Part shown: piece by piece, positions 1 through 40,215 of the stretch
How positions within the stretch are numbered: position 1 is the stretch's first letter
How the letters are laid out: each line of letters begins with the position of its first letter
Origin: Acidiphilium sp.
Lineage (GTDB): Bacteria; Pseudomonadota; Alphaproteobacteria; Acetobacterales; Acetobacteraceae
DNA: 64,000 bases
Assembly: GCA_027449105.1 (NCBI GenBank)
Contig: DAIDMG010000001.1
Span: forward strand, 1-64,000
Reading direction: 5' to 3'
Position numbers and translations under genes: made by a program
The notes under the pieces: generated by a model
What the model was told of the DNA's origin: nothing
The model's database searches: none
What the model saw: the letters and a program-made list of their open reading frames with translations, nothing else

Positions 1-3
1 GGC

Positions 4-1185
4 ATGTGGTTCTCCCACCACGAGATCACGATGAAGGCCACGGGCGAGGCCGTACCCACCGCAGTGCGCTCCCTGGCCCGCTCGATCATGCGCCAGATCA
101 TGCGGCGACATCGCCGCCCTGATCTGTGCCACATCTCCATGCGCCTCGACCACCGCGCCGCCTGCCTCGCCGCCCCAACCAGGGCCGCCCAGGCCGGGCG
201 TGTCGGCTGGTGGGTCAACCTGTCCACGATGGAGCGGGGCAGGAAGATCGCCGTGCCTCTTCTGACCTACGATCACCACCGCAACCGGCGTGGTCAGGTC
301 AGCAACGGCGTGCTCGTGACCGGGGATCGCAACACAGGCAAGCTCCTGTTCGGCGTTGTCACCGACATCGGGGCGGATTGCGCCGCCAGCCGTGCCGCCT
401 ATGAGCCCAGACGGGATGCGATGGCTCTCGACTTCGGTCTGTCTATCCTGTTTGCCGGCGATGACGGCGCGCTGCTTGGCAAGGACTGGCTGAAGGCGCT
501 TCGTGCCTATGATCATCGCATCACGGAGATCGCCAGGGGCATGCAGCGCCGGGGGCGGAAGCCGCGAGAGAGCGCCCGCTACCGCAAGGCGGTGACCGCC
601 CTGCGCGGCTGGATCAGGACCGAGGTGGGGCGCGTCCTGAACGCGCTCGTCACTGCCAGGCGGCCGGCGGCGCTGGTGCTTGAGCGGTTGGACTTCCGGA
701 GCCCGGCGCTGTCGTCCCGGTTGAACCGCATCATCCAGAACTGCGGTCGAGCGGTGATCCGCGCCAAGCTGGCCGATCTCCAGGATCGCTTCGGTGTCAC
801 GTCCGAAGAGGCGAACCCGGCCTACACGTCCCAGACCTGCTCGTGCTGCGGCTATGTGGACAGGCGAAATCGCCCGTCACAAGGCATCTTCCATTGCCTG
901 CGGTGCGGCCAAAGAATGCACGCCGATGTCAATGCGGCACGGAATATCGGGCGACGCCGTGCGTCGCCTATCGGTTCCGTGTTCCAGTCGAAGGCGGCGA
1001 TCCTCGCTGAACTGCTGCGCCGGTTCAACGAGCGAAGGGTGCTCGGCACCCGATCCGGTGGGAGGGGTTCCACCGCCGACCCGCGATTGGCCAATCCCTA
1101 CTTCAGTGGGGAGAAGCCAACAGCAGCCCGGATGTCGAAAGCAAGGCCGCTACCAGATCTGGTGGCGGTTGAGCTAACTCGATAG
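4..1185 (+). CDS. tnpB: TnpB-family RNA-guided endonuclease (IS200/IS605-type), possibly 5'-partial
   Basis: Predicted TnpB nuclease of an IS200/IS605-like element, a family of RNA-guided DNA endonucleases related to Cas12. Numbering from the first visible Met, the split RuvC core is complete: D143 in ALDFG (RuvC-I), E227 in LVLERLDF (RuvC-II) and D308 in HADVNAARNI (RuvC-III). A zinc ribbon is formed by C279/C282 and C298/C301. The frame is open to base 1, so the true N-terminus may lie outside the window; 393 residues are visible, close to the usual family size. The last 45 or so residues are low-complexity and run through a structured guide-RNA scaffold and an end hairpin, as is usual when the RNA overlaps the 3' end of tnpB. 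No tnpA transposase is visible, so mobility would need one in trans or to the left. All catalytic residues are present, so it may be active. Confidence 0.85.
   Translation: MWFSHHEITMKATGEAVPTAVRSLARSIMRQIMRRHRRPDLCHISMRLDHRAACLAAPTRAAQAGRVGWWVNLSTMERGRKIAVPLLTYDHHRNRRGQVSNGVLVTGDRNTGKLLFGVVTDIGADCAASRAAYEPRRDAMALDFGLSILFAGDDGALLGKDWLKALRAYDHRITEIARGMQRRGRKPRESARYRKAVTALRGWIRTEVGRVLNALVTARRPAALVLERLDFRSPALSSRLNRIIQNCGRAVIRAKLADLQDRFGVTSEEANPAYTSQTCSCCGYVDRRNRPSQGIFHCLRCGQRMHADVNAARNIGRRRASPIGSVFQSKAAILAELLRRFNERRVLGTRSGGRGSTADPRLANPYFSGEKPTAARMSKARPLPDLVAVELTR
1023..1111 (+). ncRNA. Putative omega-RNA (reRNA) scaffold and element right-end hairpin
   Basis: The 3' end of tnpB carries the sequence expected for its guide-RNA scaffold. 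A 38-nt block at 1023-1060, ending in CACCCGATCCGGTG, matches the tnpB relic near 40 kb at 33 of 38 positions. It is followed by GGGGTTCC, a palindrome GATTGGCCAATC (1085-1096), and a hairpin CCCTACTTCAGTGGGG (1096-1111) of the CTTCAG type common at the right end of such elements. The guide would be read from sequence just to the right. Boundaries are inferred; expression cannot be seen. Confidence 0.5.
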
Positions 1186-1456
1186 TGCCCACGGCCTCGA
1201 TGCCCATGGACAGGTTTGCGACGGCTCGTCGGCAAGAAGAAAGCGGCGACGTGGATAAGCAGGTTTGGCGTCTTGCCATGAAGTGGGTCGCACCTTCAGG
1301 GTACTGCGTCTTGGTGTCGAGAACGCAAAGATAAGGAAGCCGACCTTTTGCAAAATCGCTTCATTGATTGGAGGGCGTGGCGTTGCAGAGGGGTTGCTCG
1401 GCGGGACTATCGGACTCACCTACAGAATGATGACGGGTCAGGATCGGAGCACCGCC

Positions 1457-2884
1457 ATGACAGTCGTGGAAACTGACGTACCGGCGCGGCTAGACCGGCT
1501 GCCTTGGGCCAGGTTCCATTGGCTGGTTTTGATCGGACTTGGGGTTGCCTGGATCTTGGATGGGCTGGAGGTGACGCTGGTCGGTTCCCTGTCTGGCGCG
1601 ATTGCACAGAGCCCGGTCCTGCACATGTCGGCGTCGCGTGTTGGCGACAGCGCCAGCGCCTATTTGGCGGGCGCTGTCATCGGCGCGCTCGGCTTCGGGT
1701 GGCTTGCCGATCGGCTGGGGCGCAAGCGGCTTTTCGGGGTGACAGTGTTGATTTATCTGAGCGCGACCCTGGCCACCGGGTTTGCCTGGAGTTTCGCATC
1801 GTTCGTCGTATTTCGTGCTCTAACAGGAGCGGGCATCGGAGGGGAGTATACGGCCGTTAACGCGGCGATTCAGGAAATGATCCCCGCGCGGCAGCGTGGA
1901 TTCGCGGATCTCGTGGTAAATGGCTCGTTCTGGATTGGAGCCGCCATCGGAGCCGGCGGCTCGCTCATCGCCCTCGATCCGCACATGATCCCACCCGGAT
2001 TGGGATGGCGGATCGCTTTTGGACTTGGCGGGATCCTGGGCCTCGGTGTGCTGCTGTTACGGCGCTGGATTCCTGAAAGCCCGCGTTGGCTGATGACCCA
2101 CGGCGAGCCGGAGCTAGCCGAGCAGGTGGTACGACAGATCGAGACCAGCGTAGAGGTGCAAAAGGGGCTGCTGCCCCCAGTTCCGCCGGAGCGGTTGCGA
2201 TTGCGAACCGACGTAAAGTCCTGGTTTGGTGCTGGAATGGTCGCATTGGCGACGCGCTACCGACAGCGCACCATGTTGGGGCTGGTCCTTATGGCGAGTC
2301 AGGCGTTCTGCTACAATGCTGTGTTCTTCACATACGCACTGATCCTGACACGGTTCTACGGCGTGAGGGCCGGTGCGGTGGGCTTGTTCATCCTGCCATT
2401 TGCAGTGGGCAATTTTCTTGGCCCGTTGCTTTTGGGGAAGCTGTTCGATGTGCTTGGGCGGCGGGTGATGATCGCGGGAACATACGCGGCGTCCGGTGTG
2501 TTGATGGCAGTGAGCGGCTGGCTTTTCGCACGGCGCGAGTTGTCGGCGATCGGGCAGACTGAAACGTGGACGGCGATCTTCTTCGTTGCTTCAGCGGCGG
2601 CGAGTTCCGCTTATCTGACTGTGGGCGAGAGTTTTCCGCTGGAGATCCGAGCGGTGGCGATCGCGTTGTTCTACGCGTTTGGCACGCTCATCGGTGGTGT
2701 GGGAGGGCCGGCGCTGTTTGGGGCGCTGATCCAGGGCGGGTCGCGAACCGCCCTGATGTGGGGCTACGAGCTCGGCGCGCTCTTGATGCTGGCCGCAGCC
2801 GGGATGGCGTGGGCTCTGGGAATCGCGGCAGAGCGGCGTTCCCTCGAGGCCGTTGCACCGCCGCTGGCCGCAACTCCGGATTAG
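1457..2884 (+). CDS. MFS transporter, sugar/other-solute porter type
   Basis: Inner-membrane major facilitator permease of 475 residues with twelve hydrophobic segments. Family motifs are visible: the loop 2-3 signature DRLGRKR, the GIGGEY motif of helix 4, and PESPRW after helix 6, which is typical of the sugar-porter and aromatic-acid/H+ symporter groups. The substrate cannot be read from sequence. The start is set at the ATG that gives MTVVETDVPARLDRL, preceded by GGAGC. The frame stays open upstream, but that stretch is not transporter-like. It follows the tnpB locus after about 270 bases of sequence with no supported gene and stands alone as a transcription unit. It lacks obvious operon partners. 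Confidence 0.8.
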   Translation: MTVVETDVPARLDRLPWARFHWLVLIGLGVAWILDGLEVTLVGSLSGAIAQSPVLHMSASRVGDSASAYLAGAVIGALGFGWLADRLGRKRLFGVTVLIYLSATLATGFAWSFASFVVFRALTGAGIGGEYTAVNAAIQEMIPARQRGFADLVVNGSFWIGAAIGAGGSLIALDPHMIPPGLGWRIAFGLGGILGLGVLLLRRWIPESPRWLMTHGEPELAEQVVRQIETSVEVQKGLLPPVPPERLRLRTDVKSWFGAGMVALATRYRQRTMLGLVLMASQAFCYNAVFFTYALILTRFYGVRAGAVGLFILPFAVGNFLGPLLLGKLFDVLGRRVMIAGTYAASGVLMAVSGWLFARRELSAIGQTETWTAIFFVASAAASSAYLTVGESFPLEIRAVAIALFYAFGTLIGGVGGPALFGALIQGGSRTALMWGYELGALLMLAAAGMAWALGIAAERRSLEAVAPPLAATPD

Positions 2885-3229
2885 AAATAATTATGCGTTC
2901 AAGTCGTGCAGAGTCCGCAGGCAACATCCGTGTGTTAGAGAATGCACCGGGGCGGCAGGCCAAACCGTCTGCGCGTGTTTTTGGCCGTTGCCGCATGTTC
3001 GTACGTGGTCGGGCTTTTCTCCTCGCTCATGATCTACGTTGATCACGCCAAGCATTTTCCCGGAGATCATTCGGATGGTACATCGCGGCAGGGTGTCGGC
3101 GTCAATGATGCGGCCCACAATGCCATACGGGCCAGCGGTACGGACCAGACAGCATTTATCGAAGCAGGCTGCCCCAGGTTTGTGGGTCTGTCTGGGTGGG
3201 CAAGGACGGGCCGTGCAGTGAACCACGGC
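2885..3229. other. Non-coding stretch with no supported gene
   Basis: This 345-base stretch lies between the MFS gene and the FNR-type promoter. An open frame begins at 2942 with a possible membrane helix (residues about 9-30), but it lacks a clear ribosome binding site, and its C-terminal half is low-quality sequence that runs over the downstream promoter. No strong hairpin or repeat is seen. Confidence 0.4.
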
Positions 3230-3271
3230 TTGACTCAGATCAATGATCAGCCGTCGATGACACCGCATAAT
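3230..3271 (+). promoter_or_regulatory. FNR/FixK-type promoter (class II geometry)
   Basis: TTGACTCAGATCAA at 3230-3243 fits the FNR/FixK dyad TTGAN-N4-NTCAA. Twenty-two bases downstream lies CATAAT (3266-3271), a 5 of 6 match to the -10 hexamer. Box centre to -10 centre is 32 bases, the spacing expected for an activator bound at about -41.5. The predicted start is near 3278, giving a leader of about 150 bases before the SHOCT-domain gene. This suggests induction under low oxygen. Confidence 0.6.
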
Positions 3272-3428
3272 CCGCGTGATCGAGAAAGGGTGCGTAGCCG
3301 CGGAAGCACAAGACTCTTGTCCGCATGCTTCTGAACTGATCTTGTGGCCCCTATTCCGGTGATAGCTTTGAGCAGAGGGCCGTCGGGCCGCGCGACAATG
3401 AACATTCAGGCCAAACGAGGATAACAGC

Positions 3429-3725
3429 ATGATGTGGGGTTACGGACCGGGTTATGGCTACGGCGGCGGGTGGCATGCATGGGGGCCAATGATGCTGTTC
3501 GGGGGATTTTTCGGCTTTGCCTTCCTGCTTTTGGTAATCGTGGCCGGGGCTTGGGCGATTCGCTCGATGGGGCGCGGACACCAGTGCTATCCTTCGGCAC
3601 AAGGTGTACCGCCCCAAACCGAGCGAACCTCGCGCGGTCTTGAAATCCTTGATGAACGTTACGCGCGTGGTGAGCTGGAGCGTGAAGAATATCTCCAGCG
3701 CAAGAAGGACCTTCTCGGGCCTTGA
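3429..3725 (+). CDS. Small membrane protein with C-terminal SHOCT domain
   Basis: A 98-residue protein. The N-terminus is rich in Gly, Tyr, Trp and Met (MMWGYGPGYGYGG), followed by one hydrophobic segment at about residues 23-46. The C-terminal 25 residues form a SHOCT motif with the pattern LEILDERYARGELEREEY. SHOCT domains are short helical modules found at protein ends and thought to mediate oligomer or partner contacts; the biochemical role here is unknown. The start follows GAGGATAACAGC. The gene lies about 150 bases downstream of the predicted FNR/FixK-type promoter and 357 bases ahead of the ClC antiporter gene, so both may respond to oxygen. Similar small proteins often accompany metal or redox stress genes. 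Confidence 0.75.
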   Translation: MMWGYGPGYGYGGGWHAWGPMMLFGGFFGFAFLLLVIVAGAWAIRSMGRGHQCYPSAQGVPPQTERTSRGLEILDERYARGELEREEYLQRKKDLLGP

Positions 3726-4082
3726 TCGTGATTTTGGGGCGCATTTCCGTTTCCCCAAATTAGACCCGGCGCGAGCCACCAGTCCTTCGAATGGGTTGCC
3801 CGATTCTTCCTGGCCGTTGTTGACTTCCATGACGATGTGCGGTGTGGCATGAGCCGGATCGCCATGTCCGTGGAACCATTCGACTAAGCGGGCCCGGCCT
3901 GCACATATGCCACGTTGCACGACCCGACGGTGGGCGGAATGCGCAACGCGGAGCCGACAAGACGAGGCCAGATTTAGGAGCGTTTTCGGGGCTGGAATGA
4001 CGTTTCGGGCGTTCGGCGGCCCGCGCGCGGGATTGCCCCGCAACTCTTTATGGGTTCCAGGTCTTGATCCCCCCGGAAGTCA
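3726..4082. other. Intergenic region, no supported gene
   Basis: 357 bases between the SHOCT-domain gene and the ClC antiporter. A minus-strand frame is open across it, including a protein-like stretch around 3780-3890, but it has no convincing start and continues antisense through the SHOCT gene. No clear terminator with a T tract is visible after 3725. Confidence 0.4.
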
Positions 4083-5462
4083 ATGCTTTTTGGAGCATGG
4101 CACCTTCTCGAGCGTGGTTTCTGGGCAGGTTGGCATCCGGGGAGACGGGTCGCGGTGGAAGCAGCGAAGCAAAATATCATTTTTATTGCGGCCGCAATCA
4201 TAACAGGCGTGATATCGATCGCGTTCGGAATCGGGATAACACGCGCCAGTGCGCTCTTCGCTCACGTCACGGCGCATCGACTGTGGCTCACGCTGCTACT
4301 TTGCCCGATCGGGCTGGCTGGGATCGTGTTTTTGACGCGCACAGTGTTTCCCGGGGCGCAGGGCTCCGGCATTCCGCAGGCCATGGCGGGGATGACCATG
4401 CGAGATCAGGCGAACGTTGATACCGTCCTGTCCCTGCGCATTGCAGTCGGCAAGTTTCTTCTGACTTTGGCCGGCTTTGCGGTGGGCGCCTCGATTGGTA
4501 AGGAAGGACCAGCGGTGCAGATCAGCTGCGCCGTGATGAACGTATGCGGGAGATTGGGGCTTGAGCGCAGCCTTTTACTGCAGCGCCTGCTGATTCTTGC
4601 GGGAGGAGCGGCAGGAATTACCTGCGCATTCAACGCTCCGGTTGCCGGCGTCTTGTTTGCGATCGAGGAGATGGCTGGAAGTTTTTCCAGCCGAGAGGCG
4701 CGCTTGATCATCCTCGCTGCTTTTGGCAGCGGAATTACGCTGTTGCTCCTCCTCGGATATCAGCCCTATTTCGGTTTTTCCCATGCTACCCTGCGACTTG
4801 GGCTTGTCTGGCTACTGGTCCCTGTCTGCGCAGTCATTGGCGGGGTTGCTGGTGGTATATTCGCGCAAGTGCTGGTAACACCGAAACGGTTCATGCCGGG
4901 CCCGATCAACTGGTTGGCCAAGCATCACCCGATTGGTTTCGCTCTGCTCTGTGGCCTGCTCCTGGCCGCGTTGGGTCTGATTTCGCATGGCCAGATCTTC
5001 GATGCGAGCCATCGTGAGGCGCAGGAGGCCTTGACGGAGGGTGTGGTTTTGCCCTTCGGCTTCGCGCCGCTGAAGTTTCTGGCGACACTGATCTCCTATC
5101 TTTCGGGGATTCCGGGCGGTATATTCGCTCCTTCGCTGGCCGTGGGAGTGGGACTTGGCACGATGTTCAGTCATCTCGTGCCAGGCGTGCCGGTGGCCGC
5201 ATTCGCGATGGTGGGAATGGCCGGCTATTTCTCCGGCGTGGTCCAGTCACCGCTGACAGCGACGGCAATTGTGATCGAGATGACCAGCAATCCGGCAATG
5301 ACCGTCCCGGTCGGGATTGCCGCCATTCTCGGCACAATGGCGTCCCGGCTGGTTTGCAAGGAACCCGTCTATCACGCCATGGCACACCAGTTTTTGCGTG
5401 TCGTTGAACGCGAACCGGAACCGACGACGGACGACGATACCACCGGTGCGGAACCCGACTAA
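4083..5462 (+). CDS. clcA: ClC-family chloride/proton antiporter
   Basis: Inner-membrane ClC transporter of 459 residues. The ion-path motifs are present: GSGIPQ (94-99), GKEGP (139-143) with gating glutamate E141, and GGIFAP near residue 344. The FAIEEM segment (E195/E196) aligns with the internal proton glutamate of the E. coli exchanger, so a 2 Cl-/H+ antiporter is more likely than a channel. In the first motif the family's usual Glu is Gln. E. coli ClC antiporters help in extreme acid resistance, which would suit an acidophile. There is no cytoplasmic CBS domain. The start ATG follows CCGGAAG. It may be co-transcribed with the upstream SHOCT gene, though the gap is long. Confidence 0.88.
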   Translation: MLFGAWHLLERGFWAGWHPGRRVAVEAAKQNIIFIAAAIITGVISIAFGIGITRASALFAHVTAHRLWLTLLLCPIGLAGIVFLTRTVFPGAQGSGIPQAMAGMTMRDQANVDTVLSLRIAVGKFLLTLAGFAVGASIGKEGPAVQISCAVMNVCGRLGLERSLLLQRLLILAGGAAGITCAFNAPVAGVLFAIEEMAGSFSSREARLIILAAFGSGITLLLLLGYQPYFGFSHATLRLGLVWLLVPVCAVIGGVAGGIFAQVLVTPKRFMPGPINWLAKHHPIGFALLCGLLLAALGLISHGQIFDASHREAQEALTEGVVLPFGFAPLKFLATLISYLSGIPGGIFAPSLAVGVGLGTMFSHLVPGVPVAAFAMVGMAGYFSGVVQSPLTATAIVIEMTSNPAMTVPVGIAAILGTMASRLVCKEPVYHAMAHQFLRVVEREPEPTTDDDTTGAEPD

Positions 5463-6888: not shown

Positions 6889-7135
6889 TAGCCGACAAGC
6901 ATTACAAGATACTGAGCGAGCGCGGTTAGAAGATCCTCTGCTGGTTTCGCCTTGCCGACATTTTTGAAGAACTCCACTTTCCTTCTTTCAAAATTCGGCG
7001 GCGATAGTCACGCGGTAGTGTACTCTACGTGGGGCCGTGGCGACATGCCTGATGGGCAGTGTCTCGAAATTGAATTCTTTCCATGCAGGTGCGAAGGATA
7101 TCCAGGACGCGATCTGCCAGGGATGTCGTAAATTG

Positions 7136-9988
7136 CTAACGGAGCTGTTCGGCTTTTGCCGCCGGAATCTCAGCGGAGTTCGTTGGCGGTTCGGCCAGTG
7201 CTTCAATTAGCGCGGCACGCAGTTGCGCGAGTTTGCGTTCGTTTTCGACTTTTAATCCGAACACATCCTTGACGTAGAAAACGTCTACTGCACGGACGCC
7301 ATAGGTCGTGATGTGGGCAGATGCGATCTGGAGTCCCTGTTTGGTGATTGCCGCGGTCACATCGTGGAGAAGACCTGGCCGGTCGCGTCCATTAACCTCG
7401 ATCACGGTATGCCGGTTTGACGCGACGTTATCGATGACCACTCGGGGGGGCACATGAATTGCGCGGGTCCGTGCAGCGGCGATCCCTCGCGCCTGTTTTC
7501 GAATTTCCGCGGCAAGCCGCAACCGCCCGGTCAATGCCTGTTCGATGAGGGTGGCCAGCCTCGTAACCCGGTGCGGCGAGTCAAAGGGACCGCCAGAGGC
7601 ATCTTGAATCCAGAATGTATCCAGCGCCATTCCATTGGTCAGCGTGTGAATCCGTGCGTCAACGATGGAGGCGCCGGCCAGCGCCAAGGCACCTGCAATC
7701 CGGCTGAATAGACCTGAATGATCGGCAGTATAGACGGTCACTTCGGTAACGGCCTGAGCCGGCAATGGTTGTGCGTCTACCAGCAGTTGCATCTGCTCGT
7801 GACGGGCTCGGCGAATCAAACGTGCATGCCTGGCGATACTGTCGGGATCGAAGCCGAGCCAGTATCCTGGATAAAATAGATCGAGAAAATGTGAACGTTC
7901 CTCCTCTGGCCAATCGCCAAGCAGTTCGGCAACCATTTCCTTGACCCTGGCGATCCGGGCGTCGCGTTCCGAGGTTGCCAGTCCTCCCTCCAGGACTTCG
8001 CTCACACGGGCATAGATTTCCCGTAGCAACGTGGCCTTCCAACCGTTCCAAACCTTGGGTGAGACCGAACGTATATCTGCGACGGTCAAAACCAGCAGGA
8101 GTCGCAGCCGCTCGGGAGACTGAACCACATCGGCCACATCGAGGATCGTTTTCGGGTCATCAATGTCTCGGGAAAACCCGGTTTGGCTCAGCAACAAGTG
8201 GTGTAGCACCAACCAGGAAACCATTTCGGTTTCCTCTGGCACAAGACCCAGCGCAGGGCCCAAGGCCAGGGCGATCTCGGCGCCCAGTTCCGAGTGGTCA
8301 CCACCTCGCCCCTTGGCGATGTCGTGCAGGAGCATCGCGACATAAAGGGCCCGCCTGGATTGCACGTGCCGTGCCAGCCCGCTCGCCACGGGCGCCACCT
8401 CGGCAAGTTCACCGCGCTCAATCGCGTTCAGTACGCCGATTGCGTGGATCGTATGCACATCGACCGTAAATACGTGGTAGCTATCAAATTGCATCTGGCC
8501 CACAATCCGTCGCCATTCAGGCAAAAACCGCCCGAGGGCACCGGTTTCGTTCAAAATCGTCAACCACCGTGCACCATCCGTGGTTGGCGTGTCGCTGCCG
8601 CACAACAGGTCCATGAACATCGTCGCTGCGGCAGGGTTGCTCCGCAATTCAGCGGTTCGTCGTGCGCCACGGATCATTGCGCGGAGCGCCAGCGGATGAA
8701 GGGTAAGACCGCGATCCCTGCATGCAATCAGGATCCGGAACAGCTGCAGTGGTTCGGAACTCGGCTCCCGTCCGGGCGCAAAAAGGATGCGGCCATCGGC
8801 CAGAACGAACCCCGCATCGGCGAGCGCCGAATCGGTCGTCGGGGCGACTGCCGGCGGGCCGAGTGCAACCCGGACAAGCGCTGGTTCCAGAACCGCTGTG
8901 ACGCGCGCCACCTCCCGGGCGACGAGGAAATAATGGCGCATGAACCGTTCGACGCCATCCTGTCGCCCGTGCCGTGTGTATCCCATCCGCGCGCCGACCA
9001 CCGGCTGCAGATCGAACGTCAGTCGTTCCTCGGCCCGCCCGGCGACGTAGTGCAGATGAAACCGGACCGTCCAGAGATAGTCCCATGCGCGTTTGCAGGC
9101 GCGCGCCTCGCTTTCCGTCAAAATTCCGCCGCCCGGGGCTGACGTTCCCACGAGTTCGGTCATCGCGAACGTTCCGAATACGTAGCGCGAAAGCCAATAT
9201 AGCGTCTGCAGATCACGCAGGCCGCCCTTGCCTTCCTTGATATTCGGTTCGACCATAAACGGCGTGTCACCGAAACGCCGGTGACGTATCGCGCGCTCGT
9301 CCTGTTTGGCCGCAATATACGCAGCTGGACTTTCGGCCGCGCAATCGGCTCGGAACACCAGCTGGAAATGTGCGAACAATGCCCGGTCTCCGGCAAGGCA
9401 ACGCGCGTCGAGCATCGATGTCCGAACGGTTACATCGCCGGCAGCTTCGGCAAGACAATCCTTGGTCGACCGCGTTGCGTGACCGACTTTCAGACCAAGA
9501 TCCCAGAGAAAATATAACATGAACTCAACGGTGCTGAGCACCGCGACAGACGGTTCATGATCGGTCAGGAAGAGCAGATCGATATCGGAAAATGGCGCAA
9601 GGGTTGCACGACCGTACCCGCCCGTCGCTGCCATCGAAAGGCGGTCCGTACTTACCACGCTTGGTCGCGCCGTTGCATAATCGAACAAGGCTGACAGGAA
9701 CTCATCCATCAGCCCGGCGAGCAATCGCGCTGCCGCTAGCCCACCGAGATGGCCGGCCTCGAAGCGTTCCCGCACGTGGGTTTGCAAGCGAGCCAGCTGC
9801 CGACGAAATACCTCGATAGCAATGTCACGTACCGGGTTCGGATTCTCCCGAAGGAATTCAGCCAAAGTTGACGCAATGCCGGGTCGTTCCAGCGAGTCCT
9901 GCGTTGCGGATGATGACGCAGGCTGAACCGCCCGCGCTGGGTGCGGTTCGGTCAGCGGATCGGAGACTTGTTGCATCTTATTCGTCAT
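7136..9988 (-). CDS. glnD: Bifunctional PII uridylyltransferase/uridylyl-removing enzyme
   Basis: Cytoplasmic nitrogen sensor, 950 residues. It uridylylates PII proteins when glutamine is low and removes UMP when glutamine is high. Domain order matches the family: a nucleotidyltransferase with GGYGRAT and the metal-binding DIDLLF at about residues 121-143, a GlnD helical domain, an HD hydrolase with LLHDIAKGRGGDH near residue 555, and two ACT domains (about 750-830 and 865-935) that bind glutamine. Its start overlaps the end of mutS by 11 bases, so translation is probably coupled. Adjacency of mutS and glnD is common in alphaproteobacteria. No key residue appears to be missing. Confidence 0.95.
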   Translation of the reverse strand: MTNKMQQVSDPLTEPHPARAVQPASSSATQDSLERPGIASTLAEFLRENPNPVRDIAIEVFRRQLARLQTHVRERFEAGHLGGLAAARLLAGLMDEFLSALFDYATARPSVVSTDRLSMAATGGYGRATLAPFSDIDLLFLTDHEPSVAVLSTVEFMLYFLWDLGLKVGHATRSTKDCLAEAAGDVTVRTSMLDARCLAGDRALFAHFQLVFRADCAAESPAAYIAAKQDERAIRHRRFGDTPFMVEPNIKEGKGGLRDLQTLYWLSRYVFGTFAMTELVGTSAPGGGILTESEARACKRAWDYLWTVRFHLHYVAGRAEERLTFDLQPVVGARMGYTRHGRQDGVERFMRHYFLVAREVARVTAVLEPALVRVALGPPAVAPTTDSALADAGFVLADGRILFAPGREPSSEPLQLFRILIACRDRGLTLHPLALRAMIRGARRTAELRSNPAAATMFMDLLCGSDTPTTDGARWLTILNETGALGRFLPEWRRIVGQMQFDSYHVFTVDVHTIHAIGVLNAIERGELAEVAPVASGLARHVQSRRALYVAMLLHDIAKGRGGDHSELGAEIALALGPALGLVPEETEMVSWLVLHHLLLSQTGFSRDIDDPKTILDVADVVQSPERLRLLLVLTVADIRSVSPKVWNGWKATLLREIYARVSEVLEGGLATSERDARIARVKEMVAELLGDWPEEERSHFLDLFYPGYWLGFDPDSIARHARLIRRARHEQMQLLVDAQPLPAQAVTEVTVYTADHSGLFSRIAGALALAGASIVDARIHTLTNGMALDTFWIQDASGGPFDSPHRVTRLATLIEQALTGRLRLAAEIRKQARGIAAARTRAIHVPPRVVIDNVASNRHTVIEVNGRDRPGLLHDVTAAITKQGLQIASAHITTYGVRAVDVFYVKDVFGLKVENERKLAQLRAALIEALAEPPTNSAEIPAAKAEQLR

Positions 9989-39899: not shown

Positions 39900-40215
39900 C
39901 GCGGGTAGGGAGCGCTCCATGGTGGATTGGAGGCGGAACCCCTTTTACACCGGATCGGGTGCTGAATACTCTTCGCTCGCTGAACCGAGCGCACCCGTTC
40001 AGCGAAGACTGACGGCTTCGCCTGGAAAAACCGAACCGATCAGCGACGGACGGGCAGCCGATGTTGCGTACCGCGTTGCCATCGGCGTGCATCCTGTTGC
40101 CGTACCCGCGTGACAGGCAGGGGAATTTGTCTGCGACGGGGCGCCTGTCCACGCAGCCGCAGTCCGCGAAGGTCTGTGACGAGTAGGCCAGGGGTTGATG
40201 GGCTGTCTCGGGCGC
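39900..40215 (-). pseudogene. Decayed tnpB 3' end with scaffold remnant
   Basis: Minus-strand relic of a second TnpB gene. In shifted frames it shows the zinc ribbon and RuvC-III region: YSSQT near 40185, CGCVDRR, then NRMHADGNAVRNIG, matching the intact copy's YTSQT, CGYVDRR and QRMHADVNAARNIG. Zinc cysteines are partly lost. At 39948-39985 the guide-RNA scaffold block matches the intact locus at 33 of 38 positions, including CACCCGATCCGGTG, followed by GGGGTTCC and CCCTAC at equal spacing. The CTTCAG end hairpin of the intact copy is missing. Upstream sequence to about 40400 may be further decayed coding DNA. Confidence 0.75.

What the first reader, a model, noticed from the sequence alone, without database searches (positions are those of the whole stretch)
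4..1150. Apparently complete TnpB nuclease with an overlapping guide-RNA scaffold at the left edge
All RuvC acidic residues and the zinc ribbon are present, and the gene's 3' end carries a structured block shared with a relic copy plus a CTTCAG-type end hairpin. TnpB proteins are RNA-guided nucleases (established for the family), so this locus may be an active programmable nuclease whose guide is read from about 1112 onwards.
Basis: partly seen in the sequence, partly recalled or inferred. Interest (0 to 1): 0.55.

Follow-up and report, generated by a model that had tools for sequence, protein, structure and literature searches.

The report
TnpB nuclease inside a DDE transposon
The gene at the window's edge is the back part of an RNA-guided DNA cutter (TnpB) that rides in an ordinary 'cut-and-paste' bacterial transposon (IS1595 type) rather than in the two transposon families to which such cutters were said to be confined, which gives bacteria a counterpart of the eukaryotic Fanzor transposons and a testable guide RNA and target motif.

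Summary
Window 1-1185 encodes the last 394 residues of a TnpB-family protein with all three RuvC acids, a zinc ribbon and a strongly structured 3' end. It is not complete: the contig starts inside the gene, about 124 N-terminal residues are missing, and the assembly does not hold them. The guide would not start at ~1112: the scaffold and the element run on to 1190. Full-length relatives show that this is not an IS200/IS605 element. tnpB follows, with a 1-nt overlap, an IS1595-family DDE transposase, inside one element with terminal inverted repeats and exact 8-bp target-site duplications (Acidocella-type genomes, Indioceanicola, Salipiger). A 2023 paper states that TnpBs occur only with IS200/605 and IS607. 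IS1595 transposons captured TnpB at least twice. The last ~190 nt show covariation, z = -4.2 and halved synonymous divergence, as expected of a guide-RNA scaffold that includes the terminal repeat. 31 of 35 left ends have RTA directly before the duplication, with no equally strong motif on the right: a candidate TAM. Guide RNA, TAM and cleavage are inferred, not shown; a transposase target preference is the main rival for the motif.

The parts
1..1185 (+). tnpB, 3' part (C-terminal 394 codons + stop; the ~124 N-terminal codons lie beyond the contig edge)
424..438 (+). RuvC-I motif ALDFG (catalytic D144, nt 430-432)
673..696 (+). RuvC-II motif LVLERLDF (catalytic E228, nt 682-684)
838..909 (+). 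zinc ribbon CSCCG...CLRCG (Cas12f1-like TNB domain)
919..945 (+). RuvC-III motif HADVNAARN (catalytic D309, nt 925-927)
1001..1190 (+). predicted reRNA scaffold: hairpins 1001-1035, 1037-1051, 1056-1075, 1076-1131 and a terminal stem 1133-1184 that pairs TGTCGA with the terminal repeat
   Evidence: fold z -4.2; covariation on 33 right ends; synonymous divergence about halved over codons 446-514
1176..1190 (-). right terminal inverted repeat GGGCACTATCGAGTT (element end at 1190)
   Evidence: partner left repeat CGGAACT.. in relatives
1191..1198 (.). presumed 8-bp target-site duplication ACGGCCTC; predicted guide would be read from here into the flank. The matching left end of this copy is not in the assembly
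   Evidence: the same 8-mer precedes a left end in related genome G008 (L062)
39905..40192 (-). relic of the same element family (right-end and tnpB C-terminal remnant, 74% DNA identity)

Best explanation
The locus is the right half of an IS1595-family (DDE, cut-and-paste) transposon that carries a TnpB nuclease in one operon with its transposase. SHOWN in relatives: order is left repeat, zinc-ribbon/DDE transposase, tnpB overlapping its stop codon (TGATG), right repeat, with exact 8-bp target duplications. SHOWN here: right half of tnpB, right repeat, structured 3' end. INFERRED: the 3' end of the transcript is made into a guide RNA whose scaffold (~1001-1190) includes the terminal repeat and whose guide is the flank from 1191 (the duplication and what follows). 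INFERRED: TnpB recognises the same sequence in an emptied donor site next to a 5' RTA(W) motif, cuts it, and so makes repair from a sister copy put the transposon back. This would counter loss by excision, as proposed for IS605/IS607 TnpB (own knowledge).
For: Linkage: the gene upstream of tnpB in L081 matches PF12762 DDE_Tnp_IS1595 E 2.3e-32 and PF12760 Zn_ribbon_IS1595, with a 1-nt gene overlap; the homologous transposase lies directly upstream in L083 (Acidocella aminolytica isolate) and L084. Salipiger profundus plasmid: annotated IS1595 transposase then a TnpB-like protein 47% identical to that of L081. Ends: L081 ATCCGAGA, L157 TTCTCCAT and L159 ACGGCAGG flank both repeats exactly; six more exact pairs: G002:C64, G002:C196 and G008:C177 in one piece, and C5/C19, C171/C66, C8/C51 split between contigs of the window's own genome. 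Recent movement: five right ends in the genome 97-100% alike with five different flanks. TnpB selection: pN ~0.1-0.2 against pS ~0.4-0.7 over codons 125-445. RNA: fold z -4.2; 33 pairs with two-sided changes (shuffles 23.4 +/- 2.6); covariation score 0.187 against 0.134 +/- 0.005 shuffled and at most 0.091 slid; pS drops to 0.19-0.39 over the scaffold while pN rises, in all comparisons within the acidophile group. Motif: RTA at -11..-9 in 31 of 35 left ends and in 9 of 9 with exact duplications, background 1.3% per site; right side much weaker.
Against: The window itself shows neither transposase nor left end. No RNA, TAM or cleavage data. Two TnpB-less IS1595 targets also have ATA (L263; the ISRm32 hot spot), and position +10 on the right is A in 20 of 39, so part of the motif may be the transposase's. 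The outer part of the terminal stem (helix 10) pairs in only 44% of cells, and the Indioceanicola comparisons show no drop in synonymous change; the Salipiger right end was not folded.
Confidence: 0.76

Rival explanations
1. The IS1595-TnpB element is real, but RTA(W) is only the transposase's target preference and TnpB does no RNA-guided homing (for example it regulates transposition, or is a passenger).
For: Related TnpB-less IS1595 elements hit ATA sites too (L263; ISRm32 hot spot). Weak mirror-image A at +10. All TnpB-bearing elements with the motif have related transposases. The one example of the second TnpB lineage with a duplication has GCA, not RTA.
Against: A DDE transposase acting as a symmetric dimer should give a two-sided motif. 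A at -9 is 27/27 but T at +9 only 9/39 (p 8e-11), W at -8 27/27 but W at +8 20/39. 9/9 against 2/6 same-clade controls, p 0.011. Catalytic residues and purifying selection are kept.
Confidence: 0.22
2. The conserved 3' block is DNA only: transposase-binding sites and repeat, not an RNA scaffold.
For: It lies at the transposon end and ends in the terminal repeat. Relics keep it.
Against: It reaches ~190 nt inward, far beyond a 15-25 nt repeat. Paired changes hold the hairpins and slid controls fail. No such block is seen at the left end, where only ~20 nt are shared between subfamilies before the transposase gene.
Confidence: 0.1
3. A standard IS200/IS605 or IS1341-type TnpB element; the IS1595 gene upstream in relatives is chance nesting.
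For: TnpB is classically in such elements, and the window shows no transposase.
Against: The same gene order in L081, L083, L084 and L159, one shared pair of ends, and 8-bp duplications flanking transposase+tnpB as one unit; IS200/605 insertions make no duplication (general knowledge). The nearest non-IS1595 relatives sit beside IS607 TnpA, not Y1.
Confidence: 0.02

Closest known systems
TnpB of IS607 elements (Thermus pTthSNM7-6b, Bifidobacterium longum plasmid; 34-35% identity)
   Same: RuvC/zinc-ribbon protein of 480-530 aa, overlapping an upstream transposase gene; same TnpB clade, 100/100 split from IS605-like TnpB
   Different: IS607 uses a serine transposase without target duplication; here an IS1595 DDE transposase with inverted repeats and 8-bp duplications
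IS1595 family (for example ISPepr2, ISRm32)
   Same: DDE_Tnp_IS1595 + Zn_ribbon_IS1595 transposase, terminal repeats, 8-bp duplications
   Different: the named members looked at here have the transposase alone; here a TnpB and a structured right end are added
Eukaryotic Fanzor1 / Fanzor2* transposons (PMC10711439)
   Same: a TnpB-family nuclease inside cut-and-paste transposons with TIRs and TSDs; TIR/TSD said to be part of the reRNA scaffold
   Different: bacterial hosts, IS1595-type transposase; relation to the pro-Fanzor TnpBs not tested
IS200/IS605 TnpB (ISDra2)
   Same: fold family, RuvC triad, scaffold overlapping the 3' end of the ORF, guide expected in the flank
   Different: no Y1 transposase; inverted repeats and target duplication present; longer protein (514 against ~400 aa)

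Membership tests
TnpB (RNA-guided endonuclease family) | RuvC-like core with D...E...D and C-terminal zinc ribbon | tested here: met
   NCBIfam guided_TnpB hit is below its curated cut-off (74.6 against 100 bits) with the cut-off fragment
TnpB (RNA-guided endonuclease family) | complete protein with N-terminal WED/REC part | tested here: inconclusive
   present in relatives (514-519 aa); off the contig for the window copy, not found in the assembly; AlphaFold model useless, pLDDT 40
TnpB (RNA-guided endonuclease family) | guide RNA from the right end, scaffold overlapping the ORF end | tested here: inconclusive
   supported by structure, covariation and reduced synonymous change; the RNA itself was not observed
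TnpB (RNA-guided endonuclease family) | RNA-guided cleavage next to a TAM | not testable with these tools
   candidate TAM RTA(W)
IS1595 family | DDE_Tnp_IS1595 transposase between the element's ends | tested here: met
   relatives L081, L159; in the window's own genome the transposase is found at left ends paired to right ends by the duplication (C5/C19), not in the window
IS1595 family | terminal inverted repeats and 8-bp target duplication | tested here: met
   (relatives); for the window copy only the right repeat is present
IS200/IS605 | Y1 (HUH) transposase, no terminal inverted repeats, no target duplication | tested here: not met
IS607 | serine-recombinase TnpA | tested here: not met
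   the TnpB protein itself is nearest to IS607 TnpBs

The most novel reading that the evidence does not exclude
TnpB helps to choose the insertion site: TAM (RTAW) recognition by TnpB directs or licenses the IS1595 transposase, so that a DDE transposon inserts in one orientation beside a TAM, which would explain why a symmetric transposase leaves a one-sided motif.
Probability: 0.08. Interest if true: 0.93.

Novelty: new variant of a known kind. Interest (0 to 1): 0.72.

Why it matters
A 2023 analysis (PMC10711439) asks why TnpBs are found only with IS200/605 and IS607 while eukaryotic Fanzors spread into many transposon families, DDE types among them. Here bacterial DDE transposons carry TnpB, from two unrelated TnpB lineages in one transposase clade, so the question can be studied in bacteria with simple genetics. 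The elements give a defined RNA scaffold, a candidate TAM and natural insertions to test whether RNA-guided cutting helps a double-strand cut-and-paste transposon persist. They are also new compact nucleases to characterise.

Tried and rejected
Rfam: only tRNAs in the window. Viral contigs: no relative. Class-wide profile search at E <= 1e-60: no other hit in 386 Alphaproteobacteria, so the family is rare; among 398 sampled Acetobacteraceae-level family genomes, 6 hold it. AlphaFold2 on the 8-sequence alignment: pLDDT 40, discarded; no fold search run. Empty site for the window insertion: in the 12 other genus genomes no orthologous flank aligned up to the insertion point. ACGGCCTC occurs as left duplication in G008 L062, whose right flank is different; possibly the same ancestral insertion recombined, not provable. 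First TnpB tree had a misframed row, replaced. Literature: no paper in the held open-access library was found that puts IS1595 or ISXO2 and TnpB in one element (some papers hold both words, none by title or abstract about such an element, and only PMC10711439 and PMC9956272 were opened); subscription papers were not searchable, so priority is not certain.

Full report
WHAT IS IN THE WINDOW. Window base 1 is base 1 of contig C1 of a fragmented genome (2.77 Mb, 388 contigs). Frame +1 is open from base 1 to the stop at 1183-1185. The 394 residues match Cas12f1-like_TNB (E 2.4e-17), guided_TnpB (E 8.7e-21, below the curated cut-off) and Cas12f/TnpB structures. D144, E228, D309 and the four zinc-ribbon cysteines are present. 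Relatives of the same gene have 514-519 residues and begin about 124 residues earlier. Those residues are not in the assembly, so this copy cannot be called complete or broken.

WHERE THE ELEMENT ENDS. Copies in the same genome (C55, C66, C19, C119) are 97-100% identical to the window up to 1190/1191 and then differ. The end reads ..AACTCGATAGTGCCC|. Five near-identical right ends with five different flanks point to recent movement.

WHAT CARRIES IT. In L081 (MAG JA2.bin15) tnpB (2629-4173) starts inside the stop codon (TGATG) of a 319-aa gene (1670-2629) that is an IS1595-family transposase: PF12762 E 2.3e-32 and PF12760 E 6.5e-11. Both lie between inverted repeats 1623.. and ..4190, flanked by the exact 8-bp duplication ATCCGAGA. 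The same order is found in the isolate Acidocella aminolytica DSM 11237 (L083, the transposase cut at its contig start) and on complete plasmid pTPRO6 of Salipiger profundus (L159: repeats 2412 and 5149, duplication ACGGCAGG), so it is no binning artefact. Indioceanicola profundi (L157) keeps ends, duplication TTCTCCAT and full tnpB, with only a 136-aa stub of transposase. In the window's own genome the left ends with transposase lie on other contigs and can be paired to right ends by their duplications: C5/C19 AAACAGAT, C171/C66 AGGGGCTT, C8/C51 TTTTGTTT. The partner left end of C1 was not found.

RNA SCAFFOLD. Window 991-1190 folds at -97.2 kcal/mol, z -4.2; L081 z -3.3. On 33 right ends the structure of the window pairs 77.6% of cells (slid controls 28-48%), has 33 pairs with changes on both sides (shuffles 23.4 +/- 2.6) and a covariation score of 0.187 (shuffles 0.134 +/- 0.005; slid at most 0.091). 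The structure came from one of these sequences, which favours it over the slid controls, and relatedness inflates shuffle tests. One helix pairs TGTC(G/A) inside the element with (C/T)GATA of the terminal repeat, A-U in 14 and G-C in 10 right ends. An independent sign: among the acidophile copies, synonymous divergence is ~0.4-0.7 over codons 125-445 but 0.19-0.39 over codons 446-514, where protein change is higher. The constraint thus moves from protein to nucleotide over the scaffold.

INSERTION SITES. Of 35 distinct left-end flanks, 31 have RTA immediately before the duplication position, and all 9 elements with an exact duplication do: L081, L157, L159, C5/C19, C171/C66, C8/C51, G002:C64, G002:C196, G008:C177. 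Background is 1.3% per site. In the 27 with a clean tip, -9 is A 27/27, -10 T 25/27, -11 R 27/27, -8 W 27/27. On the right side the mirror positions are much weaker: T at +9 9/39, A at +10 20/39, W at +8 20/39. This is where a TAM must lie if the guide starts at the duplication. Controls without TnpB in the same transposase clade with exact duplications: RTA in 2 of 6 targets (L263 and the ISRm32 hot spot, which is hit in both orientations), none in 6 from other clades; Fisher p 0.011 (against the 6) and 0.0002 (against all 12). The controls are few, so a transposase preference remains possible.

TWO CAPTURES. Two other genomes of the same family (L233, L234) have a related IS1595 transposase (44-49%) directly followed by a different TnpB; in L234 it has the OrfB_IS605 and TNB domains. 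L234 has duplication TTAAAAGT and left flank GCA. In the TnpB tree the window's lineage groups with IS607-associated TnpBs (Thermus, Bifidobacterium), L233/L234 with IS605-like TnpBs (100/100); one origin for all IS1595 TnpBs is rejected (p-AU 0.0002). The transposases of both kinds lie in one clade with TnpB-less ones (95/97), and a single clade of the TnpB bearers is not rejected (p-AU 0.49).

MECHANISM. Shown: composite DDE transposon (in relatives), signs of recent mobility in this genome, selection on the nuclease, structured right end, one-sided target motif. Inferred: processing of the 3' transcript to a guide RNA, TAM recognition, cutting of the emptied donor site and restoration of the element by repair.

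KNOWN OR NEW. [quoted passage not shown] PMC9956272 sorts TnpB elements of six species into IS605, IS607 and IS1341. No paper found in the held library describes TnpB in IS1595. Protein family and transposon family are both known; the combination appears new, hence 'new variant of a known kind'.

Noticed in passing
L233 (G049:C48) and L234 (G122:C649): A second, unrelated TnpB lineage (OrfB_IS605 type) coupled to an IS1595 transposase; L234 has duplication TTAAAAGT and left flank GCA.
   Followed up: partly
L157 3064-3474 and L181 (reverse strand, ~979-1482 of the reverse complement): Elements that lost the DDE core of the transposase (136-168 aa left) but keep a long TnpB frame, as if the nuclease outlives its transposase.
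   Followed up: no
G000 C74:5965-7023, C5:47820-48515, C39:291-740, C17:12438-12991: Internal-deletion derivatives that join the transposase N-terminal part to the TnpB C-terminal part, some in one open frame (364 aa in C74); they keep most or all of the structured right end.
   Followed up: no
L237 (2405-3361) and L246 (2399-3361): Other IS1595 elements with near-perfect repeats and exact duplications carry a different ~320-aa cargo gene (MPKDKIIEP.. / MPDKNIIEP..).
   Followed up: no
L278, L279, L280, L282, L284: ISRm32-type IS1595 copies in Sinorhizobium plasmids repeatedly sit in the same short target GCATA-ATGTATCR, in both orientations: a target hot spot.
   Followed up: partly
G000 contigs C5, C7, C8, C14, C18, C30, C36, C69, C106, C171, C184: At least five subfamilies of these left ends lie at contig ends, many 77 bases in: the assembly breaks at these repeats, so the copy number is higher than counted.
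   Followed up: partly
G000:C119 ~7100-7592, G000:C189 and G008:C177: An old copy (site GTA|TTTGATTA/G) is shared by two genomes and in G000 seems to be interrupted by a young copy with flank ACTTCATA.
   Followed up: partly
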